Below, piece by piece: positions 7,607 through 41,216 of a DNA stretch of 45,360 bases (its first letter is position 1; each line of letters begins with the position of its first letter). A program made the position numbers and the translations under genes. The stretch comes from Chrysochromulina tobinii (Eukaryota > Haptophyta > Prymnesiales > Chrysochromulinaceae). Location of the stretch: the NCBI GenBank assembly GCA_001275005.1, contig JWZX01002518.1, forward strand, positions 1 through 45,360. Reading direction: 5' to 3'. A model generated the notes under the pieces. The model was given only the letters and a program-made list of their open reading frames with translations, searched no databases and was not told where the DNA came from.

Positions 7607-7640
<34 letters not shown>

Positions 7641-8756: not shown

Positions 8757-10627
8757 ATGAGGAGAACGCCCATGCGCCGCGCTCTCGCTCGCTCGCTCTC
8801 GAGCCGCGCGATCGCCGTGATATCGCCGCGTGATGGTCGTGTGTTCGCCGAGATCGCCGATGCATCGGCCGCAGAGGTGGATGCGGCCGTCAGCCGTGCT
8901 GCCACCTGCGCGCGCTCACCATGGGCACGGCCGGAGTCGGTCGACGTACGCTCCGCGTCGCTGCGGGCGCTGGCGGCGGCGATTCGGCGCGAGACATCGC
9001 GACTCGCCGAGCTCGAAACGCGCGATTGCGGCAAACCCATCCGGGAGAGCGTAAGCGACATGACCGCGAGCGCCGCTTGCTTCGAGTACTATGCGGAGAT
9101 CGCGGCGGAGGAGCTCACGCCGCAGCCGCTCGCGCTGCCCGACGAAGCCTTCAGGTCGCGCGTGGTCGCATCCGCGGCCGGTGTTGTCGCATGCGTCACA
9201 CCGTGGAACTTCCCACTCCTGCAGGCCTCCTGCAAGGTGGCGCCCGCGCTCGCCGCCGGATGCGCGACGCTGCTCAAACCGTCTCCGCTCGCATCGCTCA
9301 CATGCCTCGAGCTGGGCAAGCTGGCTCAGGCCGAGGCGGGGCTGCCCGAGGGTGCGCTGAGCGTGCTCACCGGCGGCCCGCCCGTGGGCACCTCCGACGG
9401 CGCCTCGCGCCTCATTGAGCACCCTCGCATCGACTATCTCTCGTTTACCGGCTCGACGCGCGCCGGCGTCCAGGTGCGCCCTTCCGGTCCTGATGGCCCT
9501 GATTGCGTCTGATGGCGTCTGATGGCGTCCAGGTGCGCGCCCTACCGGTCTTGATGGCCTTTGATGGCCCCCCGAGCGCCCCCTGATTGCGTCTGATTGC
9601 GTCTGATTGCGTCTGATCCTCGGCGCTTTCGTGGGCGCTGTCCAGATGCTCGGCGCGAGCGCGCCGCACGTGCGCCGTACCGGCCTGGAGCTTGGCGGCA
9701 AGGGCGCACTCATCGTCCTCGAGGACGCGCCCATGACGGCGCTCGTCGATTGGGCGATGATGGGGATCTTCATGACGTCGGGTCAGGTGTGCTGCGCGAC
9801 CTCGCGCCTGCTCATACACGTCTCGCGCAAGGACGAAGTGCTTGAGGCGCTGCGGGCGAGCGCGGCGGCGGTGCGGATGGGCGACCCTCTCGACGAGACG
9901 ACCCAAATGGGTGCCGTCATCACGGAGGAGGCTGCCTTGCGCCTCGTCGGAGCGGTGGCACAGGCGCGCGCCGAAGGCAGCATCCTCGTCTGTGGCGGCG
10001 GGCGCGTCGCGGCGGGCGCGTTACCGGCTGCCCTAGCCGGCGGTTACTACGTGCAGCCGACAGTGCTTGCGGACGTCCCTCGGAGTTCATCCGCGTGGCA
10101 GGCGGAGCTCTTCGGCCCGGTGCTATGCGTGCAGAGCTTTGAGAGCGAGGAACAGGCTGTCGCGCTCGCTAACGACTCGCCCTACGGCCTCGCGCATGCC
10201 GTCCTCTCCGCTGACCCAGAGCGGTGTGAACGTGTGGGAGCCCAGCTTGAGGCGGGCACTGTGTGGCTCAACTGCAATCAGGTGAGAGGTCAAGGCCGGA
10301 TGACCACTGATGACCACTGATGGCCTCGGATGGCCTCTGATGGCCTCTGCTGTGCTCAACTGCAATTAGTCGACGTGGCCTCTGATGGCCTCTGATGGCC
10401 TCTGATGGCCTCTGATGGCCTCTGATGGCCTCTGATGGCCTCTGATGGCCTCTGATGGCCTCTGCAACCAGACGACGTGGCCGGTCACACCCTTTGGGGG
10501 CTGGAAGGCGAGCGGCTTCGGCAGGGAATGGGGCGCTGCCGGCATGCATGAGTACTTGCGCCACAAGACGGTCACGAGCGCTGCGCCGGGCTACTCGTGG
10601 AACTACTACGGCGCCTCAACCACGTGA
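8757..10627 (+). CDS. Aldehyde dehydrogenase, ALDH10-like (betaine/aminoaldehyde dehydrogenase)
   Basis: Exons 8757-9473, 9646-10281 and 10472-10627 join in phase 0 to give 502 residues, the normal ALDH length. Family signatures are intact: TPWNFPLL (catalytic Asn), FTGS (NAD binding), LELGGKG (general-base Glu near residue 254), SGQVCCATSRL (nucleophile Cys near 288), ELFGPVLCV and TPFGGWKASGFGRE. ETRDCGKPI..., CFEYYAEIA and WLNCNQ are typical of ALDH10, whose plant members oxidise betaine aldehyde to the osmolyte glycine betaine or oxidise omega-aminoaldehydes. The N-terminus MRRTPMRRALARSLSSR looks like a mitochondrial presequence; an in-frame ATG at 8730 is an alternative start. Both introns carry 10-bp repeat arrays and copies of their own splice junctions. 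Substrate choice is not proven. Confidence 0.92.
9465..9645 (+). repeat. ALDH intron 1: duplicated donor region plus decamer repeats
   Basis: The intron runs 9474-9645 (donor GTGCGC, acceptor TGTCCAG). The exon end plus donor (GGCGTCCAGGTGCGC, continuing to CCGGTC and tgatgg) at 9465-9499 is repeated at 9524-9559, and the intron ends in a third gtccag. Between and after the copies are units such as ctgattgcgt and ctgatggcgt; one run has three exact ctgattgcgt copies near 9582-9615. Confidence 0.8.
10282..10471 (+). repeat. ALDH intron 2: decamer array with internal copy of the exon-exon junction
   Basis: The 190-bp intron (GTGAGA...CCAG) holds eight perfect tandem copies of tctgatggcc at 10381-10460, with variant copies at 10299-10349. 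At 10354-10380 a sequence resembling the end of exon 2 (gctcaactgcaattag) is directly followed by one resembling the start of exon 3 (tcgacgtggcc). Confidence 0.9.
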
Positions 10628-11019
10628 CACATGCGGCGTGAACACCGCCGCCCGGCCGCCGCCGCATGCGCCGCCGCCGCCGCCGGGTCAGCGTCCGGTC
10701 ACGCGGTCAGTAGCGTCACGCCTTTATTGAAAACCCGGAAAACCTTTTTGGAAACCGAAATTGATACACTTTGAGCTCCGCCCGAAATAGAGACTGTCCG
10801 ACAGTTATTTCAGGACGTGCCCGCGCTCACGCTCCTCCGTGACCGTGGATCCAGCCTATACTGACTCTGTGCTCACACCTCGGGTCCTCCCTCTCTATAC
10901 GGAGCGAGTACAGTTTTTGGAGGTGCCGTATGCGTGCGCATGAACGGCGACGACGCAGCGCGCCGCTCAACTGCGCGCATCCTCAGCAGCCATGTCCCAG
11001 CCTCTGCCCGAAGATCCAC
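10628..11019. other. Intergenic, 3' ends of ALDH and PsbW-like genes
   Basis: The gap lies between convergent genes. It contains a CGC/GCC-rich stretch (about 10650-10690) and an AT-richer part around 10725-10765 that could hold 3' processing signals. No gene is seen. Confidence 0.5.
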
Positions 11020-11750
11020 TTAAACGCGGTTGCGGTTGGAGAGCTCGCGGTCGCCACGGCGCGAATCGTACGTGTCGAAGAAATCGTCGTCGTCGTCCTG
11101 GTACGACTGCCACTGGCTGAAGGCGAAGCCAATCGCGAAGATAACAGTGAGGAGCACGAAGCCGAGCGAGTCGTCGTTGATGCCGAGGGCCTGCGCGGCG
11201 CGATGTGCGAGGAAGGCGGCGATGAGCGGAGAGGTTGGTGGTGGGACAGGCGAGATTTTCGCGTGCCGGTAGCGCGCAGCAGGTGCTGGCCGGAGCCTCG
11301 CCCGCAGCAGCCATGCAGGTAAATTGTGCCGTCATTCCGAGCTCGCAGAGCCAGGCGCAACGCGACCCGTGCGCGCGCAGAGCACAGGGCAGGGGGAAGA
11401 TGATCACAACTGCCGCTGCTCCGCGTGTGGCGCCTTGCTCGGAGGAGCGAGCGCGCGCGCGCGCCGCCGACACGCGATGGCGCGCGGTGCAGATGGGTAA
11501 TCTTGTGCTGTGAGCGCACCTTGCCAGTGCCCTCACCGCCCGGCTGGTCGCCAGCAAGCGGACCAAAGTCGAGACCGCCGTTGACGCCAAGAACGGACTT
11601 AGCGTGCGCAGCCTCCGAGTGAAAGGTGACAGCGAGCGCCGCCGACGACGCGGCGAGCTTGGAGAGGTGCTGCTGCAGCTTGGGCGCGGACGGCATCTGG
11701 AAGCACTCCGCAGACGCGAGGAGCATGGCAGCGATGAGCTTCTGCATCAT
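11020..11750 (-). CDS. psbW: Photosystem II PsbW-like protein, plastid-targeted
   Basis: Exon 1 (11750-11520, 77 codons) and exon 2 (11190-11020, 56 codons plus stop) join at AAG|GCC in phase 0 across a 329-bp GTGCGC...GCAG intron, giving 133 residues. The N-terminus is a signal peptide with a CFQMPSAP plastid-type motif, then a second hydrophobic stretch ending in AAHA, a typical thylakoid processing site. The mature part reads GVNGGLDFGPLAGDQPGG EGTGK, then a single membrane helix (LGFVLLTVIFAIGFAFSQW) and an Asp-rich tail. GGEGTGxxxG(I/L) before one transmembrane helix is the PsbW hallmark. PsbW sits at the edge of PSII and stabilises PSII-antenna supercomplexes. It is divergently related to land-plant PsbW, so the assignment rests on the motif, topology and targeting. 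Confidence 0.8.
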
Positions 11751-11982
11751 TTTCCAAGCAAGACCGTCGCAGCGAGGTTCTGAAGAGATCGACCACTCAA
11801 TTTGGGCGAGTTTTCACAGCGGAATCGCTCACCTCGACGCCGTCGAGTGACATGTGCAGGATGTGCTTCTCCCCCCGGTGTCTTTGAACAAGTGCTACAC
11901 TCAACCGTTGCTAGAACGAGTGCTCTATGCTAGAACAAGTGAACCCCAACCGAACGCCCGCGAACCCCACAAAATCAAAAAG

Positions 11983-13143
11983 TCAAACCCACGCCCCGTT
12001 GAGCCCTCCCTCGCCGTCCTCGTCGACCAGCAGCGGCGGCACCGCCTCCGGATCCGCCGCCTCGTCGGCGTCGGCCTCCCACGCCCGCAACCCGCCCTCC
12101 ACTGTCCGTACGTCCGCGAAGCCGGCTGCGACGAGCACAGCGGCAGCCCCCTTGGCGAGCTTGCCATCGGCGCACAGCAACACGATCGTCTCGGCGCGCG
12201 TGCACACGGCGGCGACCTCCGACGCGAACGCTTCGCTCGGCAGGTAAAACCCATGCTCCCACGTATACGCGGCGAGGTTAGTGGAGCCTCCCACGTGACC
12301 TTCGAGCCTCCATTCCGCAGGCTGGCGCACGTCAATCAGCATGGCGCTGCCTTGCAGGGCGAGCGCGGCCGCCTCGGCGGGAGACACCTCGCGAGGCGCG
12401 GCCGCCGCCGGTGGGGGCGAGGGCGGCGGCGGCGAGGGCGAGGGCGGCAAGGGCGGCGGCAAGGGCGAGGCGTCCGGGTCGACCCTCATGCCCTCGAGGT
12501 CCCGCGGCATGGCGGGGTTGAGCCAATAAGCACCCGGTGTGGAGAGGTCCGCCACGCGAAGCGCGAGCGCCGCGCTCTCCTCTCCCACAAGGTCGAGGCA
12601 CACGTCAGCCACACCCTCGAGCTCCGCCGCCACCTGGCCGCCCTCGTCGCGCGGCAGTGCCACGGTGCGCATGCCCGCGCCTAGCGCAGCGGCCACCTGC
12701 TGCAACGTCGTGACCAGCACAACGCAATACGCCGCAATCGGCTCGCGTCCGAGGCCGCCGGGACGACGGCCGAAGCCATCGGAGCCACCAAAGCCGTTCG
12801 GAGCGTCCACGTGTAGCCTCAGGCGCAGCGCACTCATCTCGGCTATGGTCGGCTCGCTCGACGAGAGCGGCCAGCACAGAGCGCCGTCACGCATCGCAGC
12901 ATCCTCCACAGGCCTGCCGGGAGGCTCGAGAAATGCGACCAGTGCGCCTTGCTCTAGTGCCTCCGCCTTGAGCCTTGCGATGCCGGCGTGGTCCACGACG
13001 TCGCGACTCAGGATGATGGCCTCGCACTGATCGATGTTACGCAGCATGGCGATGCGAGCTGAACGCGAGGCTCGCTGCATGGTCAGCGTGCAGTACTGAG
13101 GGGCAAAAGCGAGCGCCGTCAAGACTGCCGAGAAGAGGATCAT
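11983..13143 (-). CDS. Plastid-targeted HAD-like/rhodanese fusion protein
   Basis: A 386-residue frame from the ATG at 13143. The N-terminus MILFSAVLTALAFAP is a signal peptide ending in an AFAP-type motif, the bipartite plastid entry signal of chromist algae. Residues about 35-235 resemble a degenerate HAD-superfamily fold (CEAIILSRD near the start, then LVTTLQQVAAALGAGMRTVALP) but lack the DxDx(T/V) nucleophile motif. A Pro-rich linker follows. Residues about 255-360 form a rhodanese domain (SAMLIDVRQPAEW, LLCADGKLAKGAAAVLVAAG, VEGGLRAWE) with the predicted active Cys in LLCADGK. Rhodaneses transfer sulfur or bind thiols; the substrate is unknown. Its start is divergent from the DUF1995 gene about 180 bp away. 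Confidence 0.75.
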   Translation of the reverse strand: MILFSAVLTALAFAPQYCTLTMQRASRSARIAMLRNIDQCEAIILSRDVVDHAGIARLKAEALEQGALVAFLEPPGRPVEDAAMRDGALCWPLSSSEPTIAEMSALRLRLHVDAPNGFGGSDGFGRRPGGLGREPIAAYCVVLVTTLQQVAAALGAGMRTVALPRDEGGQVAAELEGVADVCLDLVGEESAALALRVADLSTPGAYWLNPAMPRDLEGMRVDPDASPLPPPLPPSPSPPPPSPPPAAAAPREVSPAEAAALALQGSAMLIDVRQPAEWRLEGHVGGSTNLAAYTWEHGFYLPSEAFASEVAAVCTRAETIVLLCADGKLAKGAAAVLVAAGFADVRTVEGGLRAWEADADEAADPEAVPPLLVDEDGEGGLNGAWV

Positions 13144-13321
13144 CGCGGCCGCCTCGACGCGGGAAAGGTTTGATGTTCATGCTGGAAGGAGCTCAACACC
13201 ATGAGAATTCCGCAATCACGAGATGAAACGCGATGTCCGCTCCAGTCCAAATCTAGCTTCCGCAGTCGGAGTACAACGCCGGGTTTTTGACGATTCTGTC
13301 CGAAACCTCTGGTTTGGGGCG
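13144..13321. promoter_or_regulatory. Putative bidirectional promoter of two plastid genes
   Basis: This 178-bp gap separates the divergent start codons of the rhodanese and DUF1995 genes. A further in-frame ATG at 13223 lies inside it and may be the true start. No recognisable core motif is seen. Confidence 0.35.
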
Positions 13322-15217
13322 ATGGTCTTCATGTATGTCATCTCCGTCGCCGCCGCAGCCTCGCCGCTGCTACTGTCAGCCGAGCGCAATATTGTGATGC
13401 CGGTTTACCGGCCGCTACTGCAGCCGGCCCGCCGATGGCCACTGCCGCGGTCGCGTAGCATTCGACTTGACGAGTCACTCTCGGACGATGCGGTACGTGA
13501 CAAGCTCGCTCGCCTCCGCAATCGTAAACCAGTGGCGCGGCCCTCGGCGGCTTCAGTGTCGCCGGAGGCGGTGGCATCGCCCGCCAACGAAAAGGAGAAA
13601 GAGTTCTCATTCATGGCGCCTCCGCCCGGCCTCGAATGCAATGATGACGACGAGTGCGTGCTGCCCGAGTTGGCGGATGGGGACGAGGACAAATCGGCCA
13701 ATGACGAGGGGCCCGCACCGATCGACCGGCTGCGGGCGACGGTGGCCGCACGCGCCACGGCGGCTGCGCCGCTGGACGAGTCGGCCGCGGCCGAGATCCG
13801 CACCTTCCTCAACGAGTACCTCGGTGACGAGATGCTCGGCTGGGTTCTGATTCACACGGAGTTGGGCAAGGAGGCCGCGCGCAAGAACGCGTGGAGCGCG
13901 CGCTCGTGGGTACCCAAGACGGCGCGGATCGAGGCGCTCACGGGGCGCTCGCTCACCGTGCGTGTGGGCGTGCAGGAGCGAGGCAAAGCCGAGCCCACCA
14001 TTCTCATCACGGAGCTAGCCCTGCCAAGGCCGGTGGAGAGTGTCGATGCGCTTCGGGACGTTCTTCTGGAGCTGAGCCAGCCGCCCGAGAGCGAGGGCGG
14101 CAAGGGCGGGAGTGCGGCGATGAGCCCGGGCACGAGCGCCATCCTCCTCCAGCTGCCCGGCGCCACCGACGACTGGTCCCTCCCCGATGACCTGTGGCTC
14201 AATACTTGTCCGTACCCGCGCGCCGTACGGCAGATGTTTTATGAGGATGTGTCGAGTGCGATGCAGGCGGCTGTGGCGGATTTCTCATGCGCGCGCCGGA
14301 TGCGCGTGTGGGTGAGCCCGCCGGAGCTCAACATGGAGATGGACTCGTACCGTGTCGGCTCGCTCCTCGAGCTCGTGCGAGATTGCGCGCTCGGGTTTGC
14401 TAAGCATGGGTTGCGCACACGCGTCTGTGTCCAGGGCTCGATGGGGCAGGGCGCGTTCACCGGAGTGCCGCGCGTGCTGAGCGGGATCCGCAAGCTGCTC
14501 AGTATGATGGACTGGCAGGCGCAGCCGGGCGAGGAGTATGAAGGGCTCCTCACGGGCGGCGACGGGGAGGGCGATGGCAGCGACGGCAGCGGCGCGGGCG
14601 GCGGCGGCGCGGGCGGCGGCGAGGAGGGCGCCTTCGACGGCATGGTGCGCTTTGGCGCGGTCGGGGCGGCGGAAGTGAGTCCGTCGGATGATGTGCTGCT
14701 GGTCTTGGCCCCGCAGAGCATGGTGGGGGCGAGCATCTATGAGCCCCTGCGAGCGATGACCGAGGCGGCCGAGGCGCAGGGCTCGGCCATCATCCTCATC
14801 AACCCGCAGCTGCAGGACCGACAATCCTCCTCTGGGGTAATGGGGGTGCGTGGGCGTGCCGAGCGTCTGGCGTTCGCCTCCTCGTTTGAGGACATCTACA
14901 CCTTCCGCAACATCTACTCGGGCACCACGTTCATGTATCCAATTTTGGGTGGCTTGCGATTGACGCGGCCGGTCGGCGCCGTGTCGGGCGGGCGGCGAGT
15001 GCTTTACCAGAGGCGCGAGAGTGGGGGGCACGAGCGCTATGAGCCCGTCGGCTGCTGGCTGCGCCGTGAGCCCAGCGCGAGCGAGATCACCGAGCTCGTG
15101 CCGAACCAGGTGGTCGGTGTGGGGCCTGCCGGCGGCGGGGCGCAACCTGCGCCGAGCAGCGCGCCCGCACAACCTGCGTCCGCCATTGTCAAGGGGGAGC
15201 GCATGCCGTGGGACTGA
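13322..15217 (+). CDS. DUF1995 protein, LPA3-like photosystem assembly factor candidate
   Basis: Intronless. The ATG at 13322 opens a signal-peptide-like MVFMYVISVAAAASPLLL (631 residues); an ATG at 13223 in the same frame adds 33 residues. After an acidic linker, the C-terminal half (about residue 300 on) matches the DUF1995 pattern: PYPRAVRQMFYEDV near its start, YRVGSLLELVRDCALGF, DDVLLVLAPQSMVG, SAIILINPQLQDRQSSSGVMGVRGR, and SGTTFMYPILGGLRL. A Gly-rich insert near residues 415-440 is low-complexity. Known plastid DUF1995 members include LPA3, which helps insert CP43 during PSII assembly. The plastid location and neighbouring PSII and antenna genes fit, but the specific function is inference. 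Confidence 0.75.
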   Translation: MVFMYVISVAAAASPLLLSAERNIVMPVYRPLLQPARRWPLPRSRSIRLDESLSDDAVRDKLARLRNRKPVARPSAASVSPEAVASPANEKEKEFSFMAPPPGLECNDDDECVLPELADGDEDKSANDEGPAPIDRLRATVAARATAAAPLDESAAAEIRTFLNEYLGDEMLGWVLIHTELGKEAARKNAWSARSWVPKTARIEALTGRSLTVRVGVQERGKAEPTILITELALPRPVESVDALRDVLLELSQPPESEGGKGGSAAMSPGTSAILLQLPGATDDWSLPDDLWLNTCPYPRAVRQMFYEDVSSAMQAAVADFSCARRMRVWVSPPELNMEMDSYRVGSLLELVRDCALGFAKHGLRTRVCVQGSMGQGAFTGVPRVLSGIRKLLSMMDWQAQPGEEYEGLLTGGDGEGDGSDGSGAGGGGAGGGEEGAFDGMVRFGAVGAAEVSPSDDVLLVLAPQSMVGASIYEPLRAMTEAAEAQGSAIILINPQLQDRQSSSGVMGVRGRAERLAFASSFEDIYTFRNIYSGTTFMYPILGGLRLTRPVGAVSGGRRVLYQRRESGGHERYEPVGCWLRREPSASEITELVPNQVVGVGPAGGGAQPAPSSAPAQPASAIVKGERMPWD

Positions 15218-15516
15218 AAGACCATTGTCAAGTGGCTCCCGAGGGACCGCGAGAGGCCGTGAAGAAACGCGGAACAATTCACATTCATACTACCGAGTCC
15301 CGTGCATGGGGGTCCGGAGAGTGTGCGCTGCGCTGCGCTTTTGAGTTTCACAGCAGCTGCAGCATTTTACCGGTAACACCGCCAATTTGTGTGTTGTCCA
15401 GCTCACACCTCGCCAGGCAAAGGCCGCTTCGTCGCATCGCCGCGCCTTCGCTGCCCGAGAGTGAAGCTAACGCGTCGTTGTCGCACCCTATCGCCACGCA
15501 GATCTTCGCAGCAGCA

Positions 15517-22712: not shown

Positions 22713-25331
22713 TTATGGGAAGCGAAGGGCAACTAGTCGTGAGCGCATGCGGACGAGCTTCCGAGCGAGCCAGCTGCGTCGCATCCACTTGCCCAGGCAC
22801 GCCTGCCGGCGCTGGCAGGGTGTGGCAGGCTCGCGTGTGGAAGAAGTCAAGAGCTCGACCTGCGAGCTCAAGCAGGTCAGACGATCGGAGAGCTCGAGGA
22901 CCTGCAGTCGAAGCCGCAAGTTCTCTTGCGCCACCTCCTCGTCCACGCTGTCGGCGCTCGCATGGCCCAGAGAGAGCCCCCCCAGCGACAGCCCCCCGAG
23001 CGACATCGCACCAAGGGACATCTTGCGGGCAGTGCGGCTGCGCGGCGTTGGGCGAGGGGCTGTGTTGGGGGCCGTGTTGGGGGCCGTGTTGGGCGAGCGT
23101 AGCGATGGCCATCCAAAGAGTCTCCGGGGGGATGTGCCGTTGGGGGAGGTGCGATTCGAGAGCCAACCGGCCGGAGGAACGCTCGCACACAGCCGCTCGG
23201 GCGAGGGCGACGAATCCTTAAGTGACGAATCCTTGGGTGACGAATCCTTGGGTGACGAATCCTTGGGTGACGAATCCTTGGGCGACGAATCCTTGGGCGA
23301 CGAATCCTTGGGCGGCGGCGGCGGCGGCGGCGATGGCAGCTGCGAGGTTGCATAGATGCCCGCGAAGCCATCTGTGAATGCCGACATCATGTGAATGCCC
23401 GCGAAGCCATCTGGCGGAGGCGGAGGAGGCTCCTCGGCAGAGGAGACATCGTCGTCCCTTTCCGCGCTCACAGTGGTTCCGAGAGTTTCAACGACGTCGG
23501 CGTTTACGTTCGCAGGGCGGTCGGCATTCACAGGGTCGTCGGCATTCACAGGGTAGTCGGCATTCACAGGGTAGTCGGCATTCACAGGGTCGTCGCCATC
23601 TTCGGCCGCCGCCTCAGCATCCTCGTCGGCATTGCTGTGCCGCCTGTGCATCGCAGCCGACGGCAGCGAGCGAGCTCGACGGCTCCCTTGATGAGGGATG
23701 TCATGAGACAGAGCTCGACGGCTCCCTTGATGAGGGATGTCATCAGACAGAGCTCGACGGCTCCCTTGATGAGGGATGTCATGAGACAGAGCTCGACGGC
23801 TCCCTTGATGAGGGATGTCATCAGACAGAGCTCGACGGCTCCCTTGATGAGGGATGTCATCAGACAGAGCTCGATGGCTCCCTCCCGAGCGCGTGAGCAA
23901 CGGGTTCGTTGGCCCTTCGTCTGCCCGGGACGTCGCCTCCATCGGGCCTTCGTCTGCCCGGGACGTCGCCTCCATCGGGCCTTCGTCTGCCGCCTGCTCG
24001 CCGCCTCCCTCCCAGCAGCCATGAGCGCCGCCCCGGGCGCCGCCTCCGCTGCCCACCAAGCCGCCTTCGCTCGAGAGCAAGCGCGTCCTCCCCGTATGCG
24101 ATTGCGAATGCCATCCCACCGATCGGCCAGTACGGCGCCTCACACGCCCACTCATCGACGGCGCGATCGCGCTCGAGGCGGCGCGTGCCGCCACGTGCAA
24201 GCTCGCGATAATCTGACGGGTGCCCGGCGAGGGCGGTTGCGAGCGTGCTGTCGCCTCCAAGGCTAGGCGCATACGTGAGGGGCTTGGAGCCTTGTCAATG
24301 CAGACGTTGTCGGCGGCGGCGGCAGCGGCGGCGAGGGCCGCGGCAGTCCCGGGCTGCAGCGCGCTTGTGTGCTCACGTGCTGGCGACTGCGGAGCCTTGA
24401 TTGCACCTTGATTGCACCTTGATTGCTCTTGATTGCACATTGATTGCTCACGTGCTGGCGACTGCGGAGCCGTTGACATCTCGCCTGGCTCCAACGCGAG
24501 CGTCGCTGCCGAGCTAGGCGCCGCCTCATCCTCTGCCGGCGACCATGCCGCCTCCGCCGTCCCCTCCCTGATGGTCTTGACGATCTCAGCCGTCTCCTCC
24601 TCGGCAAATACGAAGAGTGTGGGCGCGGCGACGGCGCGTTGTACTGGGCGCCGCTTGGGTGTCCCCTTCGAGCTCGATGGCGTCTTCGTCCTCGCATCGT
24701 TCGGCGTGGGCGGTGGCGTTCGCGGCGGCGCGGCGCATAGCGGCGAGGGTGGCGGCTGTGAAGGGCGATGCGGTGTGGGCGGCGCCTCGCCCCCCTCGTT
24801 CAAAGAGCGCGGCCCCAAACCCTTGCGTCTCGCCACATAGGTGCGTAGCGACGCCGGCGGTGCGGCCGGATTCTCTGCGTTGACGTCCATCTCGGCCGTC
24901 TTGCTCTTCAAGAGCCACTTCGAAAGCGTGTTGGGCGTTTGGCCTGGCGTGGTGCAGGGTGTGGTGCAGATTCGACTGCTGCCTGGCATGGAGGTTGGCG
25001 TGCTGCCCTTGGACGACGCGGCATCGCGCATCGAGCTCTCGAGCCAGGCGAACTGTTGCTCCCAGGTCGGAGAGACCACGTCTTTCCTGGGCCGCTGTGA
25101 TGTGCAAGACAGCTGCAGCTGTGGCGTGCAAGACGGGTCTTCGAGAAATCTCGCCCTCAAGGCGAGCGCAGCGGGCCGGCAGTCGAAGGGCGTGAGACAC
25201 TCAAGGGACGGATACAGCGAGCGCGATGACTGCTCATATGGCGATGATGGGCGCCGTGCGTAAACACTCGGCAGGTCGCGCCACGAGCGCGACGACGGAG
25301 CGACCGGCGACGCTGCGTCGGCGCCGGCCAT
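22713..25331 (-). CDS. Repeat-built Ser/Pro-rich protein with C-terminal leucine-zipper-like helix
   Basis: 872 residues if unspliced, ATG at 25331. The N-terminal third is Ser/Pro/Thr-rich with many TP/SP sites. The centre is a patchwork of in-frame tandem repeats, in order: an ADEGPMEATSR block (33 bp), RRALSDDIPHQGS (39 bp, five copies), NADYPV (18 bp), KDSSP (15 bp, seven copies), NTAP (12 bp) and SLGG units. Near the C-terminus a heptad helix (QENLRLRLQVLELSDRL, then SSQVELL) could be a coiled coil; no basic DNA-binding region precedes it, so it is not a bZIP. At 24371-24471 a duplicated 26-bp segment brackets a decamer array that may be a 72-bp intron. No family is recognised. It is divergent from TOP1. 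Confidence 0.6.
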   Translation of the reverse strand: MAGADAASPVAPSSRSWRDLPSVYARRPSSPYEQSSRSLYPSLECLTPFDCRPAALALRARFLEDPSCTPQLQLSCTSQRPRKDVVSPTWEQQFAWLESSMRDAASSKGSTPTSMPGSSRICTTPCTTPGQTPNTLSKWLLKSKTAEMDVNAENPAAPPASLRTYVARRKGLGPRSLNEGGEAPPTPHRPSQPPPSPLCAAPPRTPPPTPNDARTKTPSSSKGTPKRRPVQRAVAAPTLFVFAEEETAEIVKTIREGTAEAAWSPAEDEAAPSSAATLALEPGEMSTAPQSPAREQSMCNQEQSRCNQGAIKAPQSPAREHTSALQPGTAAALAAAAAAADNVCIDKAPSPSRMRLALEATARSQPPSPGTRQIIASLHVAARAASSAIAPSMSGRVRRRTGRSVGWHSQSHTGRTRLLSSEGGLVGSGGGARGGAHGCWEGGGEQAADEGPMEATSRADEGPMEATSRADEGPTNPLLTRSGGSHRALSDDIPHQGSRRALSDDIPHQGSRRALSHDIPHQGSRRALSDDIPHQGSRRALSHDIPHQGSRRARSLPSAAMHRRHSNADEDAEAAAEDGDDPVNADYPVNADYPVNADDPVNADRPANVNADVVETLGTTVSAERDDDVSSAEEPPPPPPDGFAGIHMMSAFTDGFAGIYATSQLPSPPPPPPPKDSSPKDSSPKDSSPKDSSPKDSSPKDSSLKDSSPSPERLCASVPPAGWLSNRTSPNGTSPRRLFGWPSLRSPNTAPNTAPNTAPRPTPRSRTARKMSLGAMSLGGLSLGGLSLGHASADSVDEEVAQENLRLRLQVLELSDRLTCLSSQVELLTSSTREPATPCQRRQACLGKWMRRSWLARKLVRMRSRLVALRFP
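23209..23313. repeat. 15-bp coding repeat (KDSSP x7)
   Basis: Seven copies of a 15-bp unit around gacgaatccttgggt encode KDSSP on the minus strand, with one copy changed to KDSSL. The near-identity of copies implies recent expansion. Confidence 0.88.
23672..23884. repeat. 39-bp coding repeat (RRALS[DH]DIPHQGS)
   Basis: Five full 39-bp copies and a partial sixth start at 23672, 23711, 23750, 23789, 23828 and 23867. They are almost identical; one base alternates so that residue 6 of the unit is Asp or His. There are no unique spacers, so this is not a CRISPR array. Confidence 0.9.
24371..24471 (-). repeat. 26-bp duplication bracketing decamer repeats; candidate 72-bp intron
   Basis: Exact 26-bp copies at 24371-24396 and 24446-24471 (offset 75 bp) enclose five degenerate units of the type ttgattgcac. 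On the coding strand a GTGAGC donor lies in the upstream copy (intron start 24451) and a CCAG acceptor in the downstream copy (end 24380). Removal of 72 bp keeps frame. Read through, it encodes a Gln/Asn/Cys-rich insert. Confidence 0.6.
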
Positions 25332-26308: not shown

Positions 26309-26357
<49 letters not shown>

Positions 26358-28194
26358 GGCGGCGGGATGCCAAGCAGTCAAGGTGGCGGCAAGTGGTACG
26401 AGAAGAACCCCGATGAGGTCGAGTGGACCCGCGGCGGCCAAAAGTGGCAGACACTCGAGTGGGCGGGCGTGGTCTTCCCGCCGTTGTACGAGCCACACGG
26501 CGTCGAGTTCAGGTACAAGGGCAAGAAGGTGCCCCTCTCGCCTGATCAGGAGGAGGTGGCGACGATGTATGCGGCGATGCTCTCGACCGAATACGTGACG
26601 AATGCCGAGAAGGGCGCGGTGTTCAACAAGAACTTCATGGAGTCGTGGCGGCCTTTGCTCAAGAAGACAGAGGAGGGGAAGGAAGTCAAGGAACTCGCGC
26701 TGTGCGACTTTTCGAAGATTAAGGAGCACCTCGACGAGATTGCGGCCAAGAAGAAGGAGCTGACCGCTGCCGAGAAGAAGGCCGCCAAGATCGAGAAGGA
26801 CAAGTTCGAGGAGCCGTACCTGTACGCGCTCGTCGACGGGCGCAAGGAGAAGGTGGGCAACTTCCGCGTGGAGCCGCCGGGCCTCTTCCGCGGACGTGGC
26901 GCCCACCCGAAGATGGGCAAGCTCAAGGCGCGCATCTTCCCTGAGGACGTGAGCCTCAATATGAGCAAAAAAGCCAAGGTGCGAAGCGCGCCGCCCGCCG
27001 CTGCCGAGTGTCTCACCTCGCCACGCTGAACGCCTGTGCTCTCCTCCTTCCCACCACCCACCCCACTCATTCCCACGCCCTCCTTCCTCGGTGCCGTCAC
27101 GCTCGTCGCAGGTGCCGCCGGTGCCCGATTTGGGAGACGGCAAGGTGCACAAATGGGGCGAGGTGGTGCACAAGAACACGGTCACCTGGCTCGCCAAGTG
27201 GAAGGACTCGATCAACGGCGAGGATAAGTGCGTCTGGCTCGCGGCCAACTCGTCGTGGAAGGGCATGTCGGACATGGCCAAGTACGAAAAGGCGCGGCTG
27301 CTCAAGCAGCACATCGGCAAGGTGCGCAAAGACTATGCGGAGGGGATGAAGCACGGCGATCTGACGGCGCAGCAGAAGAGCGTCGCCGTGTACCTGATCG
27401 ACCGGCTCGCGCTGCGTGTGGGCAATGAGAAGAACACGGACGAGGAGGCGGACACGGTAGGCTGCTGCTCGCTGCGGGTCGAGCATGTCAAGGACGACGC
27501 GGGCGAGAACATGCTCCATCTCAACTTCCTGGGTAAGGACTCGATTGTCTACGACAACACCAACCCAATCGAGCCAATCGTGTACCAGATGATCAAAAAG
27601 TTCATGAAGGGCAAGAAGCCGACCGAGGAGCTCTTCGACAAGGTTGAGCCCGACGACCTGAACGACTATTTCAAGAGTGTGATGGAAGGCCTCTCCGCCA
27701 AAGTGTTCCGCACGTATAACGCGTCGATCACGCTCTGCTCGGAGCTCGCCAAGACGGACGTGGAGGTGACGGCCGAGAAGCGCGAGAAGGAGGGCGACGT
27801 GAACGCCCTCTGCTCGTGGTACAACACCGCCAACAAGAACGTGGCCATCCTTTGCAACCACCAGAAGGCCGCGTCCGCCTCACACGGAACCACCATGGCC
27901 AAGATTGACGAGAAGATTGAGAAGGTGACGGAGGAGCTTAAGGAGGCAAAGAAGGCGAAGAGCTCAAAGGTGGACGCGCTTCAGAAGCGCCTCGTCAAGC
28001 TGCAGGCCGAGCGACAGACGAAGGATGACCTCAAGAACGTCTCCCTCGGCACCTCCAAGATCAACTACAACGACCCGCGCATCACCATCGCCTGGTGCAA
28101 GCGATTCGACGTGCCCATCCAGAAGCAGTTCCCGAAGACTCTCCTAGCCAAGTTTGCGTGGGCGATGGAGACGCCCCCCGACTTCAAGTTCTGA
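25512..28194 (+). CDS. TOP1: DNA topoisomerase I (type IB)
   Basis: Exon 1 is 25512-26978 (489 codons) and exon 2 is 27112-28194 (360 codons plus stop), joined in phase 0 over a 133-bp GTGCGA...CGCAG intron: 849 residues. The enzyme relaxes supercoils through a 3'-phosphotyrosine intermediate. The N-terminus is an unstructured Lys/Ala/Pro and poly-Asp region (nuclear, as in other TOP1). The core begins KWYEKNPDEVEW and includes EPPGLFRGRG, HPKMGKLKARI and DTVGCCSLRVEH. The catalytic residues are all present: Arg in ALRVGNEK, Lys in LGKDSI, Arg in AKVFRTYNAS, His in AILCNHQK, and the nucleophile Tyr in SKINYNDPRITIAWCK (near residue 808). A coiled-coil linker precedes it. A 34-bp copy of the 3' end, stop included, follows the gene. 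Confidence 0.97.
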
Positions 28195-28244
28195 TTGCCT
28201 CCCTCATCAGGGCGATGGAGACACTCCCCGACTTCAAGTTCTGA
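28161..28244 (+). repeat. 34-bp duplication of the TOP1 3' end
   Basis: The last 11 codons plus stop of TOP1 (28161-28194) recur at 28211-28244 with two mismatches, offset 50 bp. The 16-bp spacer includes ctgattgcct, a unit like the decamer of ALDH intron 1, and the second copy directly follows an AG. Confidence 0.88.
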
Positions 28245-33494: not shown

Positions 33495-33526
<32 letters not shown>

Positions 33527-35587: not shown

Positions 35588-35915
35588 TGCCGTTATCTTC
35601 ACACAGGCGCAATTACATCCCTCATCAAGGGGCTGTCCCAGGCGCGCGCCTGGCTGCCCCCCCGCTCTGTGGGGAAACGTAAAGGCCTGTTATCTTCAAG
35701 TCAAGTCAAGTCGAATGGTTGTCTGTTGTTTACGCCGCTTTATGAATAGACTTGACTTGACTTATCTTCAAGCTCCCGCAGGTACGCAGGTGTGGATGTG
35801 TTCAGTAGGTGTGTATGAGGGCTCTCCCCCTCACCGCGACAAAACTGACTGAGAACAGAAATCTATTCTCGAGAAATCTATTCTTGAACACGAAGCACTG
35901 ATTCTGATTTTGAAG
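35588..35915. promoter_or_regulatory. Intergenic region with perfect 15-bp inverted repeat
   Basis: Divergent gap of 328 bp. The arms aagtcaagtcaagtc (35698-35712) and gacttgacttgactt (35749-35763) are exact reverse complements with a 36-nt AT-richer spacer. The word tatcttcaag flanks both arms as a direct repeat. It could be a cruciform, a regulator-binding site built of TTGACTTGAC units, or a leader hairpin. Confidence 0.55.
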
Positions 35916-38900
35916 ATGTCAGATAAGCCATTCGAGACAGAGACATTGATCGAGGCCTTCCAAGACAATGCAGCACCCTCTTCTCCGCAACATGGCGCAG
36001 TCGTGCCTGTGGACGACCTAATGATTGTTGCTTATCATAATGAGAGCGCCCCCACCACGCCAAAAGACAAGCCAACTGATCCAGCCAGAAAGCCCGAAGC
36101 GCCTGCAAAGAAGGCCCCCGCGCCCGCGCGCACGCGCACTGCTGTTTTACCTGATGCTCGCTTTCCAACTGGTGCGCGCGCGGCAGCAAAAAAGGCCTCC
36201 GCGCCGGCGGCAAAGAAGGAGCCGGCAACCGAGATGCCAGCCACACCAATGGTCGGCACCTCCCTCGCAAACCACTTTGGCATGCCGTACTTGCCGCTTC
36301 AGATGGTGTGCTCGGCGATCAAAACCGGTAGCCCCGAGGAGATGTTGACAATCGGCCGGAAGGCCCGCCTGATCGCTGGCGAGGGCTCCGTCATATTCAT
36401 CCCGCCCGAGCTCTACGCGCTCGGCTGGGCCGCCAACACCTTTGCGAACCGCGTCGAGACGGTCAACGACGCGGAGGCCATCGACGTGGCGCAACTCTTC
36501 GCGATCCCCCCCAAGGAGGTATATAGCTACGGCTGCTTTGGCCGCAGGAAGGTGCGGGTGTTTCCGAATGTGGTGCCGGAGACGCACGTCCGGATGACGA
36601 ACGCGAGCTCGGACCGCGCCATCCTCGCGCTGCGAGACGCGCTCCGGCGTGGTAACGGCGAGACGCTCCTCGCCTTTGGGAAGCGCGTGGAGGAGGAGTG
36701 GGCGATCGGCTACCGTAACGTGCCGGATCTGCATGCGCTCGTCTGGTCGTGTCACATCCTGGGCGAGCGCTGCTTGAAAGGCGACTTTGGTTCGTCAATG
36801 ACTCCCGAGGAGGCGGCCTTCCTCGCGAGACTCGAGTCCATTGTCCAGCGCGTGCACAACCTTGAAACAGGCGAGGAGCAGGTGGCTCTGGCCAGATGGC
36901 ATGCGCAGGTCACGCAGGCACTCGCGGATATGGAGGCGTCTCCGGCGTCGGACGGGCTGCCGGAGGCCTTCGTGTCGCGCAATCACCTCCGCGCGCTGCC
37001 TGCTCTTGCGGCGGTGCTCAAAATGGACGACGAGGGTTGCGCCAAGATTGCGTCGATCGAGGCGATGCCCCTCACGTCCGAAAAGATCATGGCGCTGCTT
37101 GACACCGACCATTCGAAGATGCTGGATGAGGAGGAGCTCGTGGTCTTGGAGCTCGCCCTCAAGCCCATCTTCATCCTCGAGACTTGCGTACGCCACGCGG
37201 AGAAGCAAGCCAAGGCCGGCAACCCGCCGGGGTCCCTCGCGTGTCGCTTCGTGGCCGATGGTGCGATCCTCCTCGAACAGCGCAAGATCGAGCGAGATCT
37301 CATTGAGGGCGTCATCGAGGCCAACGGGCCGACGCTCATCGCCAATCTCGCCGAGCTCGAAGCCAAGCCGAAGCTGGCGCAGCGTGTAGCGCCCGAGCTT
37401 GTGCCCCTCGCACGCCAGACGATCGTACGCTTACAGGTCGAGGAGGAGCTCTATGCCGGCGTGCAAGAGCGCGTGCGCGCCAAGTGCGTGGCTGCTCTCG
37501 AGCGCGTCGGCAAGGGCGATGCGGGAAAGTGCGTCTCACGAGAGCTCCTTGAGGGGGCGCGAGCTATGGTCGAGAAGCTCGACCTCTTCTTCGAGTGTGC
37601 GAAGGCAGTCGATGCGGCTGACGCCGATGGGCTCAAGGCCAAGATTCACGACCTCATGTCCGGCTGGTGGATGAACTCGGACGCCGACGACGGCGAAATC
37701 CAGTATACTGGTAGCCCGAACTGGCTGCTCGCCGATAAGACCCAGCTGCAAGTATACAAGGTGGCACTCAAGGAGCTGACCGTGCTGAGCTCGATCCGAA
37801 AGTACATGGAGCCGCTCAACGCCGCCCAGCTGCAGGCGTCCGTCGACGTGGCGCTCGAAGTGAAAATAAACGACCCGCTCGTCGACAAGGCGATTGAGCT
37901 TCTCAACGCTCTCGATCGCGAGACGCGCTACGGTGAGTTTGCGCACCCGCTCACCGCCGGTGGTCCGTACGAGGGCGGCTCGTGGCTAGTCAACCCACAG
38001 TTCTGCCTGACCTTTCCTGCCGAGGTCGAGTCGCACACGTGCAAGCTCTCCATCATCATGATCGAGGGCGGCAACAACTCAGACTTCAATTATTTTGAGG
38101 ACTTTGGGCTGCATCTCGTCCAAAACCCCGCGGGCAGCCTCGCCGAGGAGGTCGCACCCGACCACAAGGTCGTCGCCAAGACTGAGTACGATTCCGAGAC
38201 GTCGATCCTTGTCCTCGAGGCCCTTCCAACCGGTGATGGCGCCAGGTACTACATCGTGCCCTCGACCAAGCTTGCGAGGGAGGTGGGGCCCTTCACGATC
38301 AAGATCCTATGCGAGACGCCTGGCGTGAACATGGACGTAGAGGCCGTCGTCAAGATGGGCGATCTCGTCCTTGAGGCGATGCGCAAGGACGATTTGGTCG
38401 AGCTCGAGCGGCTGCTCAACCTTGTCCAGGAGCGCAAACTCCAGCACGTGCATGCGACGAGGGGACTTCGGTACCTTGCGCGCCGCAAGAAGGAGATCAA
38501 ACTCACCAAGGCCTGCGAGGACGCCGACCCGGACCATTCGGGAGAAGTGGAGCTCAGCGAGCTCAAAGGCCTCGTAGGCGGCACCGCCGACCTCGCGGCT
38601 GCTTTCCAGGACGGCCTTGCCGATGCTGCGAGCCTCAGCGTACCGCCGTCGCTCATCGAAAAGTCGAAGGCCTACCTTGCGCAGCTCCTCGCGCTGCCGC
38701 CTTTGGTCAAGGCGTCCGAAGACAAGGACTGGCAGGCCCTCGACGCTGCCATCCACGCGGCGAGGGAAGGCCACCTTCCTGAGCGGATCATCGAGCCCTA
38801 TATGAAGGAGATGCTCCTGCTGCGCGCGGAGGTGCGTCTGCGCGCGTGCCTCGCCCGGGGCGAAGACGGATTCCCTGAGCTGCAGTCGTGCTATGACGCC

Positions 38901-41216
38901 GCGCTTGCAACCGTGCTCAAGGGTGCCGACGTCGATGAAGCCAAGCGCATCCTCGCTGCACTTAAGGATGCGCAGCGCTCCTTCCGCGGCGCCTTCGACC
39001 AGACTTCCGGCGGCGCCAAGACGAATGCGCTCTGGATCGACAACCCGCAGTACAAACTCACGATCGGCACGCCGCCGCCGCAGACTGTGAGCGTCTCGCT
39101 CGACCGCGATGGCGCGGCCGAGTACGTGGATTACGCCGTGCACGTTGTGAGCGTGCCGGCGGGCGGCGATCAGGTGGGTGAGGCGTGCGAAGTCGTGATG
39201 GAGTCGGCGTACAATGCCGAGACGAAGACGCTCAAGTTCGCAGTGACGGCCGAGGCAACGTACTTCATCGTGTGCTCGGCCAAGGAGGCGCACATGGCTG
39301 GTGGCTTCGTGCTGACGACCATCGGCGTCGGCAAGTATACGCTCAAACAGGTAAGCCTCTGAGAACCGCTGATGACCGCTGATGACCTCTCCGAGGAGCA
39401 TGCATGTGCTCACCACGGCGCGCGCCCGGATACGCTCGAACAGGTGAGCCTCTTGCAGATCGAAATCAAGGCGGCAATGAACGCCAAGGCCTTCGAGGAC
39501 TTGCCGAAACTCATCGCGCGGGGCGTGTGTGAGAAGGCCAACATCCCGAATCACCCGGAGCTCGTGAAGGCCAAGCTCATCGGAAACATTGAAAAAGGAT
39601 GGCAGGAGAAGGACGCAGAGTTCATGGGCAATGCGCTCGGGGCCGCCAAGAACGCCAAAGTCGACAAGGCCGTGCTCAAGATATACTGTATGCGGTACAA
39701 ACAGCTCTCGATGCAAGTTCGCTTGCACAAGGCCCTCGAGAACAAGGACACGGCCTTCCTCCTGGCCGGAGTGGAGATGGCCAAACTCATCAATTACACG
39801 GGCAAGCACTGGAAGGAGGCGCAGGCTATCACCAAGAAGCACAAATTCCACAAGTCGATCGCCTCCATCTTCCTCGACGAGAACGCCGCCGGCGCGCGCA
39901 AGTTTGGCTCCTGGCGCGACAACCCCGCGTGGAAGCTCACGGCGACGGCGAAGACGATGGTGTACATTGCCATCAACGAGGACGGCAAGCTCGACGAGGC
40001 GACGGAGGTGCGCCTCCAAAAAAAGCAGCGAAAGTCGGACCTCAAATTCGCGGCAGCACGCGACAAGGTGGCGTCGACGCAGGCCGCGTCGGATGCAGAG
40101 GAGAAGAACGAGGAGCTCAAAGCGGCGGCCATGGACGCGATGCGCGTCTTCACAGAGATGGATCAGAGGCGCAGGATAAAGAAGCAAAAGATTGACGATG
40201 GCGATGAGGATGCCTTCACCCAAGTTGGCGTGCACGTTGTCAAGAACACACGCCTCTCCGCCTTTCCTGGCGTGACCGCCGGCTACGTGGACATCGCGAG
40301 CTGTAACGAGTACGGCGATGACCAGGCCTGGCTGAGCTTCGAGTACGACCCGGAGATGGGCCCGCTCTTTGTCGTGGCTTCGACGTTCACACCAGGCGAA
40401 GAAGGCATCTTCACAATGTCCTTCATGGCCGACGCTGAGCTCACCCTCGAAGAGGTGCCCGACTTTGAGGGTAACTCGTACAGGTTTAAGGGAGAATGGT
40501 CGACCGCCAACCAGGGCCCGCGCTCCAAGAAGAATGGCGACAAGGAGACGGGCGCCAAGTTCGCCCCCGAGAAGACGTGGAACAAGAATCCGCAGTACCG
40601 CGTGTGGCTCAGGGACCCGGACACGGGCGCGGCGCTCGACTCGGCCACGCTCTCCATTGTACTCTCAACTCCGATCGAAGGCGCAGAGATGGGCTTGCAC
40701 ATCATGCGCAACGCATACTGCCGTACGCCGCCAGCACTCGAGCCCGCCGCCGTTGGGGCCCTGGCACGCCTTGCAAGCACCCATATTAGGCCGTCCTCGA
40801 GCCCGCCGCCGTTGGGCCCTGGCACGCCTTGCGCCTGCATACGCCTGCACATGCCTGGACTGCGTATGCCTTGTTCCCGCTTGCCGACTGCTCACTCAAT
40901 ACGCCACGCTCGATGCCCGGCGTTCGCAGAGTTTTATAATGAGAAAATCGAGATTCTGGCGGATCGGTACCAAAGGATGGTGGGCAAGACCGACATGCAC
41001 GTGGGCTTCTCCGACGGAATGGCGCCGGAGATCGCGTTCGACGTAACTCTCGACGCCCTATTTGAGGTGAAGAAGAACGGCTGCGAGGAGGGCTTCCCCT
41101 TCTTCATCGTCCCCTCGCTCATGGACAAGAAGATGGCGGGTCCCTTTCTGATTCAAATAATCTCGGATAAGAAGATCGTCATCCAGGTACTCGATGACGA
41201 CGCGCGTAAGCTTTAG
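35916..41216 (+). CDS. Large protein with multiple calpain-domain-III-like modules and EF-hand-like loops
   Basis: Exons 35916-39350, 39444-40722 and 40930-41216 give 1666 residues. The start is the ATG of MSDKPFETETLIEAF. After an Ala/Pro/Lys-rich N-terminus come helical segments alternating with beta-rich modules opening NPQFCLTFP (about 693), NPQYKLTIG (1043), NPAWKLTAT (1304) and NPQYRVWLRD (1526). This W/NPQ..L start, followed by GLHLV or YAVHVV and (Y/F)(Y/F)IVPS, is the calpain large-subunit domain III (C2-like) pattern. EF-hand-like loops are DTDHSKMLDEEE (about 395) and DADPDHSGEVEL (about 869). No papain-like catalytic Cys/His/Asn domain is visible. Domain III binds Ca2+/phospholipid and regulates calpains, so this may be a Ca2+-responsive scaffold (inference). 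Intron 1 is bounded by a direct repeat; intron 2 (207 bp) is in frame and stop-free. Confidence 0.78.
39338..39453 (+). repeat. Duplicated AGGT junction defining a 93-bp intron
   Basis: A 23-bp sequence (two mismatches) occurs at 39338-39360 and 39431-39453, offset 93 bp, exactly the intron length (39351-39443). The first copy's CAG|GTAAGC is the donor and the second copy's CAG|GTGAGC is the acceptor plus exon start. The intron interior has two cgctgatgac decamers. Confidence 0.92.
40737..40833 (+). repeat. Direct repeat of about 38 bp inside calpain-like intron 2
   Basis: A segment starting ctcgagcccgccgccgttgg at 40737 recurs at 40797 with a one-base length difference, offset 60 bp. Both copies lie in the 207-bp intron 40723-40929, which has no stop in the flanking frame. 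Confidence 0.85.

What the first reader, a model, noticed from the sequence alone, without database searches (positions are those of the whole stretch)
9465..39453. A common 'duplication - decamer array - duplication' architecture at several unrelated loci
At five places a short host segment (about 15-34 bp) is directly duplicated and the copies are separated by units related to CTCTGATGGC / CTGATTGCGT: ALDH intron 1, ALDH intron 2, calpain-like intron 1 (39338-39453), the repeat-gene exon (24371-24471) and the TOP1 3' end (28161-28244). The SAP-gene introns carry the same decamer in the opposite orientation. Variable duplication lengths argue against a transposase with fixed target-site duplication and for repair-associated or slippage-driven synthesis that pastes in a decamer filler. 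Where the product is spliced out, it has become an intron.
Basis: partly seen in the sequence, partly recalled or inferred. Interest (0 to 1): 0.88.

Follow-up and report, generated by a model that had tools for sequence, protein, structure and literature searches.

The report
Introns born from self-copying splice cassettes
In this haptophyte alga, short repeat arrays that often end in a ready-made 3' splice signal have been inserted at many places in its genes, each time duplicating a dozen to nearly fifty bases of the gene, and many of these insertions look like introns; telomere repeats were inserted in the same way, which hints at a repair or reverse-transcription process making new introns.

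Summary
All five window sites have duplicated host sequence around decamer units, and the pattern is genome-wide. Of 85 decamer arrays tested in 284 kb, 27 have flanking duplications scoring >=18, against 0.7% of permuted flank pairs.

(1) Many arrays end in one 3' terminus, TGATTGCCTCCCTCATCAG: 3,713 places with <=2 mismatches, reversed control 0. It reads as a branch-site-like CTGAT, pyrimidines and CAG. Of 879 exact copies, 590 (67%) are followed by GT. [quoted passage not shown] (2) Duplications vary, about 12-47 bp, with excess microhomology at the left junction and no inverted ends. (3) Telomeric repeats sit in the same architecture: 4 of 16 internal arrays have 24-47 bp duplications, against 0 of 240 permuted pairs.

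Best explanation: an introner of new design, inserted at staggered breaks by a reverse-transcription-like process. The genomic structure is solid; splicing is inferred from frame, and enzyme and RNA template are unknown. DNA-repair filler capture stays the main rival.

The parts
9465..9479 (+). ALDH exon end / intron 1 start, left copy of the 15-bp duplication
   Evidence: 15/15 with 9524-9538
9474..9645 (+). ALDH intron 1, with two decamer stretches (9488-9526 and 9583-9617)
   Evidence: splicing 9473|9646 gives an uninterrupted ALDH; for the arrays
9524..9538 (+). right copy of the ALDH intron 1 duplication
10266..10281 (+). ALDH exon 2 end, left copy of duplication 1 (right copy 10354-10369, 15/16)
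10282..10471 (+). ALDH intron 2, holding decamer arrays 10305-10344 and 10380-10459 and a nested second duplication (10360-10379 / 10462-10481)
24370..24471 (-). in-frame exon insertion in the repeat-rich gene 22713-25331(-): 27-bp perfect duplication (24370-24396 / 24445-24471) around a decamer-type array (24395-24447, antisense to the gene); spacing 75 bp
   Evidence: same insertion in protein P0242 from a separate ENA contig
28160..28244 (+). TOP1 stop-codon region: 35-bp duplication (28160-28194 / 28210-28244, 33/35) around a 15-16 bp insert that is the bare element 3' end TTGCCTCCCTCATCA(G)
   Evidence: protein end in line with homologues
39337..39453 (+). calpain-like gene: 24-bp duplication (39337-39360 / 39430-39453, 22/24), GCTGATGACC units between, 93-nt intron 39351-39443 whose removal keeps the frame open
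1775..1831 (-). SAP-gene intron 1: decamer array in reverse orientation, followed by a shared 3' part (1826-1910)
   Evidence: intron status from sequence reading only
2027..2122 (-). SAP-gene intron 2: decamer array in reverse orientation, followed by the related 3' part (2123-2209, 78% to 1826-1910)
   Evidence: intron status from sequence reading only

Best explanation
These are introners of an unusual design. SHOWN: the element is a short array of about 10-bp units (CTCTGATTGC / CTCTGATGGC and variants), in many copies ending in TGATTGCCTCCCTCATCAG. It sits between two direct copies of about 12-47 bp of host sequence. Where both flanks score as coding, the frame continues across the empty site, and the GT at the start of the left host copy plus the CAG of the element would, as splice sites, restore the exon. 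INFERRED: those segments are spliced. The terminus is a complete minimal 3' splice module (CTGAT fits a branch site, then pyrimidines, then CAG; recalled consensus). Insertion works like target-primed reverse transcription: a nick next to a G lets its 3' end pair with the terminal ..CAG of an RNA (an excised intron or array RNA), the RNA is copied for a variable distance, and the far end is joined with a few bases of microhomology to a second nick 12-47 bases away, which creates the duplication. Insertions in exons survive if spliced out or in frame. Telomeric repeats in the same frame suggest the same break-and-fill route also accepts telomerase-type synthesis.
For: Fixed right end: 3,713 places <=2 mismatches, control 0. 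GT after 590 of 879 exact copies. Anchored duplication at 35 of 67 termini against 168 of 2,000 random positions. In 10 loci picked in advance from the 100 places listed, 7 have a duplication starting at or within 3 bases of the terminus. Left end and duplication length vary; in 18 non-nested cases duplications are 12-41 bp, inserts 16-108 bp, GT follows in 14. Left-junction microhomology averages 1.6 nt against 0.40 permuted, >=3 nt in 6 of 20 against 2.2%. Of the 20 non-nested duplications that begin 0-4 bases before the terminus end, 18 share its last G, AG or CAG with the target, including TOP1, L030 602 and L075, which have no GT after it. The same 47-49 bp element sits at two places in L030 with different duplications. 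Frame continues across the empty site in L029, L037 5050/2525/6705 and L041; distances of 85, 100, 82 and 73 bp would break it unless spliced. Telomeric arrays: 4 of 16 with 24-47 bp duplications, 0 of 240 permuted at >=14; two more in the random 200 kb (L035 5774, L037 6705).
Against: No transcript data. No RNA template or enzyme was identified: 26 RVT_1 matches exist, none tied to the element; a telomerase RBD search found nothing, but its controls were silent too. Several duplicated arrays lack the terminus and end at other phases (L006 1083, L030 2330, L038 7575, L045, window 24370), which strict RNA-3'-end priming does not predict. Of the 35 anchored duplications, 7 begin 1-4 bases after the terminus and 8 run on from an upstream element copy. 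G|GT at the junction could be selection for splicing. 32 of 67 termini show no anchored duplication and 54 of 85 arrays no score >=14; I read this as age, untested.
Confidence: 0.55

Rival explanations
1. DNA double-strand-break repair without reverse transcription: a staggered break is gap-filled (making the duplication) and the ends are bridged by filler copied from existing decamer or telomere DNA by a microhomology-prone polymerase. Selection keeps the copies that splice. This is the Daphnia model with a common filler.
For: Left-junction microhomology; several filler types including telomeric and unrelated repeats in one architecture; arrays ending at various phases; direct-repeat neointrons in Daphnia are attributed to staggered breaks (PMC4202315, passages seen).
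Against: In 18 non-nested terminus-bearing cases the insert ends at CATCA(G); 7 others run 1-4 bases further, and I saw no long run into donor flank. The bare 15-16 nt terminus was inserted at the TOP1 stop codon, where splicing is unlikely to have selected it. Duplications are mostly longer than the 4-12 bp reported for Daphnia.
Confidence: 0.3
2. Tandem genomic duplication of an exon piece holding AGGT makes the intron; the array grows later by slippage.
For: Calpain, L037 2525 and L037 6705 have both splice boundaries inside the duplicated piece. Near-pure tandem duplications also exist (15 with gap -3..5). L041 and L030 show later duplication of whole units.
Against: The same filler sequence appears at thousands of places, and perfect duplications already hold long fillers (L029, L037 908, L055).
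Confidence: 0.07
3. A cut-and-paste DNA transposon (MITE-type introner) carries the array.
For: Many introners are of this kind (PMC9860276, sections 7 and 8 read), including 5' splice sites taken from the TSD in Symbiodinium.
Against: Host duplications are variable, 12-47 bp rather than 3-9 bp; insert ends are no more complementary than shuffles (0.229 against 0.232, 18 cases); inserts as short as 16 bp.
Confidence: 0.04
4. Chance repeats or a metagenome assembly artefact.
Against: Permuted and reversed controls; the exon insertion is present in a protein from a separate ENA contig; splicing restores ALDH and calpain frames.
Confidence: 0.02

Closest known systems
Introners (introner-like elements), e.g. 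Symbiodinium microadriaticum family 1
   Same: Repeated sequence makes many introns; [quoted passage not shown] 2B legend).
   Different: There 4-bp TSDs and terminal inverted repeats; here 12-47 bp variable duplications, no inverted ends, a tandem decamer array, inserts down to 16 bp.
Chrysochromulina sp. introner family 5 (TARA MAG)
   Same: Same broad algal group (haptophyte, recalled), TSD without TIR.
   Different: 4-bp TSD, element carries the 5' splice site and takes the 3' one (PMC9860276): the reverse of what is seen here.
Daphnia neointrons from staggered double-strand breaks
   Same: Direct repeats of exon sequence at both ends, repeats inside the intron (PMC4202315, passages).
   Different: Repeats 4-12 bp in Daphnia; here mostly longer, and one filler family is used at thousands of places.
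Interstitial telomeric sequences inserted by telomerase at breaks in mammals
   Same: Repeat arrays inserted at breaks with microhomology (PMC2246262, passages and section 14).
   Different: There target duplication is the minority (6 of 130 rodent, 4 of 25 primate loci) and deletions prevail; here long duplications at 4 of 16 telomeric arrays, and a second decamer filler that makes introns.
Non-LTR retrotransposons (target-primed reverse transcription)
   Same: Fixed 3' end, variable 5' truncation, variable target duplication, 5'-junction microhomology (recalled features).
   Different: No protein-coding body seen: upstream of the terminus lies array, then host. No linked RT was shown.

Membership tests
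Introner | Same sequence family present as introns at many unrelated positions | tested here: met
   3,713 termini, 590 of 879 exact ones followed by GT; decamer or terminus introns with frame restored in ALDH, calpain, L037, L041
Introner | Splicing shown by transcripts | not testable with these tools
   No RNA-seq for this genome
DNA-transposon (MITE) introner | Short TSD (3-9 bp) | tested here: not met
   12-47 bp, variable
DNA-transposon (MITE) introner | Terminal inverted repeats | tested here: not met
   End complementarity 0.229 against 0.232 in shuffles over 18 inserts; one insert (L037 5682) reaches 0.6
Non-LTR retrotransposon / SINE | Fixed 3' end with variable 5' truncation and variable TSD | tested here: met
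   arrays without the terminus are exceptions
Non-LTR retrotransposon / SINE | Linked or matching reverse transcriptase | not tested
   26 RVT_1 matches in the genome, flanks not read
Staggered-break repair intron (Daphnia type) | Direct repeat of exon sequence at opposite ends of the intron | tested here: met
   permutation test
Staggered-break repair intron (Daphnia type) | Filler without a genome-wide common source (my reading of the model) | tested here: not met
Telomerase-made interstitial repeat | Telomeric hexamers inserted at a break | tested here: met
   4 of 16 internal arrays with duplications; applies to the telomeric fillers only
Telomerase-made interstitial repeat | Telomerase present | tested here: inconclusive
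   PF12009 search negative in the genome and in all 14 controls

The most novel reading that the evidence does not exclude
Excised intron RNA, ending in a free ..CAG 3' end, is itself reverse-transcribed into staggered genomic nicks. Introns thus breed new introns by copying only their 3' splice module and taking the 5' splice site from the duplicated exon. The same enzyme system also lays telomere repeats into breaks, so intron gain, minisatellite spread and break healing are one process in this alga.
Probability: 0.27. Interest if true: 0.92.

Novelty: new variant of a known kind. Interest (0 to 1): 0.78.

Why it matters
How introns arise is a long-standing open question, and most new introns have lost their birth marks. 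Here birth marks are still legible: in 10 of 31 rows measured the two host copies are identical. The alga offers hundreds of candidate young introns (590 exact terminus-plus-GT sites), each with its own empty-site prediction, so competing models (transposon, break repair, RNA copying) can be tested statistically. The parallel with telomeric insertions would link intron gain to break repair by reverse transcription. It would also show how little an intron needs: about 20 nt carrying a 3' splice module, with the rest borrowed from the host.

Tried and rejected
LINE tail: I considered that the decamers are the 3' tail of a retrotransposon. RVT_1 has 26 matches, but I saw no copy with long unique sequence between left host copy and array, so a long LINE body is unlikely; RT flanks were not read. 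Viral source: exact terminus and tandem decamer not found in IMG/VR (0 matches each). Rfam: no match in the window. RNA structure: three terminus-type introns fold no better than shuffles (z 2.59, 1.56, -1.24), while the ALDH intron 2 array does (z -5.2), which a GGCC-rich tandem repeat explains; no functional reading made. Presence/absence: ALDH relative P0122 (ENA, 71% identical) reads straight through both intron positions while carrying an insertion elsewhere that looks like an unspliced intron. This suggests absence of our introns there, but its gene caller is unknown, so I give it little weight. P0242 shares the exon insertion, so that one is not new within that pair. TERT: silent search with silent controls, no conclusion. 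SAP-intron 3' part: 6 places, two of them in the window.

Flaws in my own counts: the two ALDH seeds paired at wrong places, L030 1846, two L018 rows and L041 merged later duplications, and one of 32 seeds (L032) found no pair; these rows are in its length and identity lists but not in the microhomology set (n=20, which includes three non-decamer fillers). The L037 5050 value of 6 nt there is inflated by extension over a mismatch. One search's permuted control is not clean (5.6% >=14) because flanks contain arrays. One search used a loose terminus (<=4 mismatches): 20 of 50 with duplication, 34 of 50 followed by GT. In one search the ALDH seed paired wrongly and the L048 seed found one copy. 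In one search the L041 right flank contains a second element copy, and many other cases scored too weakly to judge. One search's random control (168 of 2,000) includes positions inside arrays.

Not in print: in the open-access PMC library only, the papers listed do not, by title and abstract start, describe this architecture; some searches listed 15 of 351, 12 of 2,027 and 10 of 322 papers; subscription papers and preprints were not searched.
Full report
WHAT WAS CHECKED. The window is contig C1370 of an unnamed 53.15-Mb, 2,253-contig eukaryote assembly. Each of the five claimed sites was read and measured. All have a host segment in two direct copies with decamer-type units between them: 15/15 (ALDH intron 1), 15/16 plus a nested second pair (ALDH intron 2), 27/27 (exon at 24.4 kb), 33/35 (TOP1) and 22/24 (calpain-like).

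INTRON STATUS IN THE WINDOW. Removing 9474-9645 and 10282-10471 gives an uninterrupted ALDH whose sequence runs cleanly through the family alignment. Removing 39351-39443, exactly the 93-bp copy-to-copy distance, keeps the calpain-like frame open. The exon insertion at 24370-24471 is 75 bp, stop-free and in frame on the minus strand, and a protein from a separate ENA contig, 95% identical over 484 aligned residues, carries it too. At TOP1 the insert is 15-16 bp at the stop codon. The protein end ..KFAWAMETPPDFKF* is in line with relatives, so nothing needs to be spliced there.

GENOME-WIDE EXCESS. CTCTGATGGC occurs 3,274 times against 40 for the reversed pattern. A three-unit array with up to 3 mismatches matches at 3,949 places against 0 (neighbouring registers of one array count separately). 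In 283,814 bases held (window, 20 heads of 10 kb from randomly numbered contigs, 13 array-targeted loci) I found 88 arrays and tested 85. The left flank was aligned to its own right flank and, as control, to right flanks of arrays in other loci. Scores >=18: 27 of 85 against 0.70% of 1,568 control pairs; >=14: 31 of 85 against 2.2%. The random contigs alone give 10 of 24 at >=14.

Many arrays end on the right in TGATTGCCTCCCTCATCAG. With <=2 mismatches it occurs 1815+1898 times, control 0; exact 879, of which 590 are followed by GT. Typical case, L037..GATGCCG | GTGGCGCGCGCACGCTGTGCTTCC | (TCTGATTGCC)n TCCCTCATCAG | GTGGCGCGCGCACGCTGTGCTTCCTATG... The left host copy begins with GT, the element ends in CAG, and cutting out GT..CAG restores the exon exactly, whatever the duplication length. 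From recalled consensus, CTGAT fits a branch site, TGCCTCCCTC a pyrimidine tract and CAG the acceptor, so the terminus looks like a full 3' splice module.

CODING FRAME TEST. With codon usage trained on window genes (frame and strand right for 53 of 54 training pieces of 150 bp; in-sample), the cases whose two flanks both score clearly as coding are in one frame across the empty site: L029, L037 5050, L037 2525, L037 6705, L041 (L041 is a doubled insertion). Distances of 85, 100, 82 and 73 bp would shift the frame if left in, so splicing is implied; L029's 75 bp would not. All five lie in gene sense by that score. The window's antisense decamer insertion (75 bp) and two insertions with other fillers (L035 5774, 78 bp; L047 537, 81 bp) have distances divisible by three. 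L037 2525 and 6705 would need GC-AG introns. Most other cases of the 31 scored were too weak to decide.

SHAPE OF THE INSERTIONS. In 18 non-nested terminus-bearing cases the duplications are 12-41 bp, the inserts 16-108 bp, and the next two bases are GT in 14, with GG, TC, GA and CG once each; telomeric cases reach 47 bp. Insert ends are no more complementary than shuffles (0.229 against 0.232; one insert reaches 0.6). Left-junction microhomology averages 1.6 nt against 0.40 in permutations, with >=3 nt in 6 of 20 against 2.2%. Anchored duplications exist at 35 of 67 termini against 168 of 2,000 random positions. Of the 35, 18 share the last G, AG or CAG of the terminus with the target, 2 begin at other points up to its end (L030 1802, L074), 7 begin 1-4 bases after it, and 8 run on from an upstream element copy and cannot be judged. 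In ten loci chosen before reading from the 100 listed places, seven show a duplication starting at or within 3 bases of the terminus; three do not, one of them (L071) having only 10 bp. The same 47-49 bp element occurs at two places 1.2 kb apart in L030 with different duplications, which is copying, not slippage.

TELOMERE REPEATS IN THE SAME FRAME. The unbiased scan of random contigs met TTAGGG-type fillers between 30-bp and 25-bp duplications (L035 5774, L037 6705). I therefore fetched all 17 non-terminal telomeric arrays among the 100 places listed (210 in all); one proved to be a contig end. Of 16, four have duplications of 47/47 (L055), 34/34 (L066), 33 (L053) and 24 bp (L063), a fifth (L060) is weaker; 0 of 240 permuted pairs reach 14. 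Eleven show none at >=12. Both orientations occur. Other fillers seen include (TCATTCGCAC)n, (CTTGA)n and non-repeat sequence.

MECHANISM. A fixed 3' end, variable 5' truncation, variable target duplication, 5' microhomology and terminal-nucleotide pairing at the 3' junction are what target-primed reverse transcription leaves (recalled). The fixed end coincides with the 3' end an excised intron would have. I therefore favour RNA copying into staggered nicks, with splicing filtering which insertions survive in exons. Against this: duplicated arrays that end elsewhere than CATCAG, no enzyme, no template RNA, no transcripts. A repair model with DNA-copied filler explains the varied fillers at least as well and stays the main rival. 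The two differ on whether inserts run past the terminus into donor flank; I saw run-on of at most 4 bases.

COMPARISON. Introners in the published survey have TSDs described as 3-9 bp, and the arrangement '3' splice site carried, 5' from the TSD' is known (PMC9860276, sections 7 and 8 and passages). The survey's Chrysochromulina example has a 4-bp TSD and the opposite arrangement. Daphnia neointrons have 4-12 bp repeats from staggered breaks (PMC4202315, passages). Amoebophrya introners have 3-5 nt direct repeats and 8-20 nt inverted repeats (PMC7789003, passages). Telomerase-made interstitial repeats in mammals show duplication in 6 of 130 rodent and 4 of 25 primate loci (PMC2246262, table passage and section 14). 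Of the review PMC3443670 and the mirusvirus paper PMC12768974 I saw passages only. What is new here is the combination: a tandem-decamer element with a splice-module terminus, long variable duplications, and telomere repeats in the same frame.

LIMITS. Only about 0.6% of the genome was read. Arrays without a duplication (54 of 85 at score 14) and termini without one (32 of 67) may be old or of another origin. Whether the terminus-bearing introns are species-specific could not be tested with DNA; one protein hint is in Tried and rejected.

Noticed in passing
window 1826-1910 and 2123-2209: The two SAP-gene introns share an approximately 80-bp 3' part (78% to each other) that occurs at four further places in the genome (84-87% identity): a small separate introner-like family.
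   Followed up: partly
L037 (C386) 1-10000: One contig head carries several terminus-bearing insertions (termini at 433, 983, 4791, 5135, 5682 and 9803); many other random contig heads have none, so insertions cluster by gene or contig.
   Followed up: partly
L018 12-72; C127:6603-6684: The terminus itself is tandemly repeated with 21-bp spacing, so later duplication acts on whole elements.
   Followed up: no
L050 7165: 29-bp perfect duplication around a 305-bp non-repeat filler; could be a longer element with the same long target duplication.
   Followed up: no
L047 537-637 and L033 7281-7426: Other repeat fillers, (TCATTCGCAC)n and (CTTGA)n, between 20-bp and 23-bp duplications.
   Followed up: no
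window 28160-28210: The 15-16 nt TOP1 insert is exactly the stretch 3' of the A of CTGAT, the putative branch point; if not chance it would fit a copy that stopped at a lariat branch.
   Followed up: no
window 10380-10471: The perfect CTCTGATGGC array in ALDH intron 2 folds far more stably than shuffles (z -5.2).
   Followed up: no
window 22713-25331 (-): Repeat-rich gene with many tandem peptide repeats, no Pfam match and a single relative at E<=1e-8 in the protein search (P0242).
   Followed up: partly
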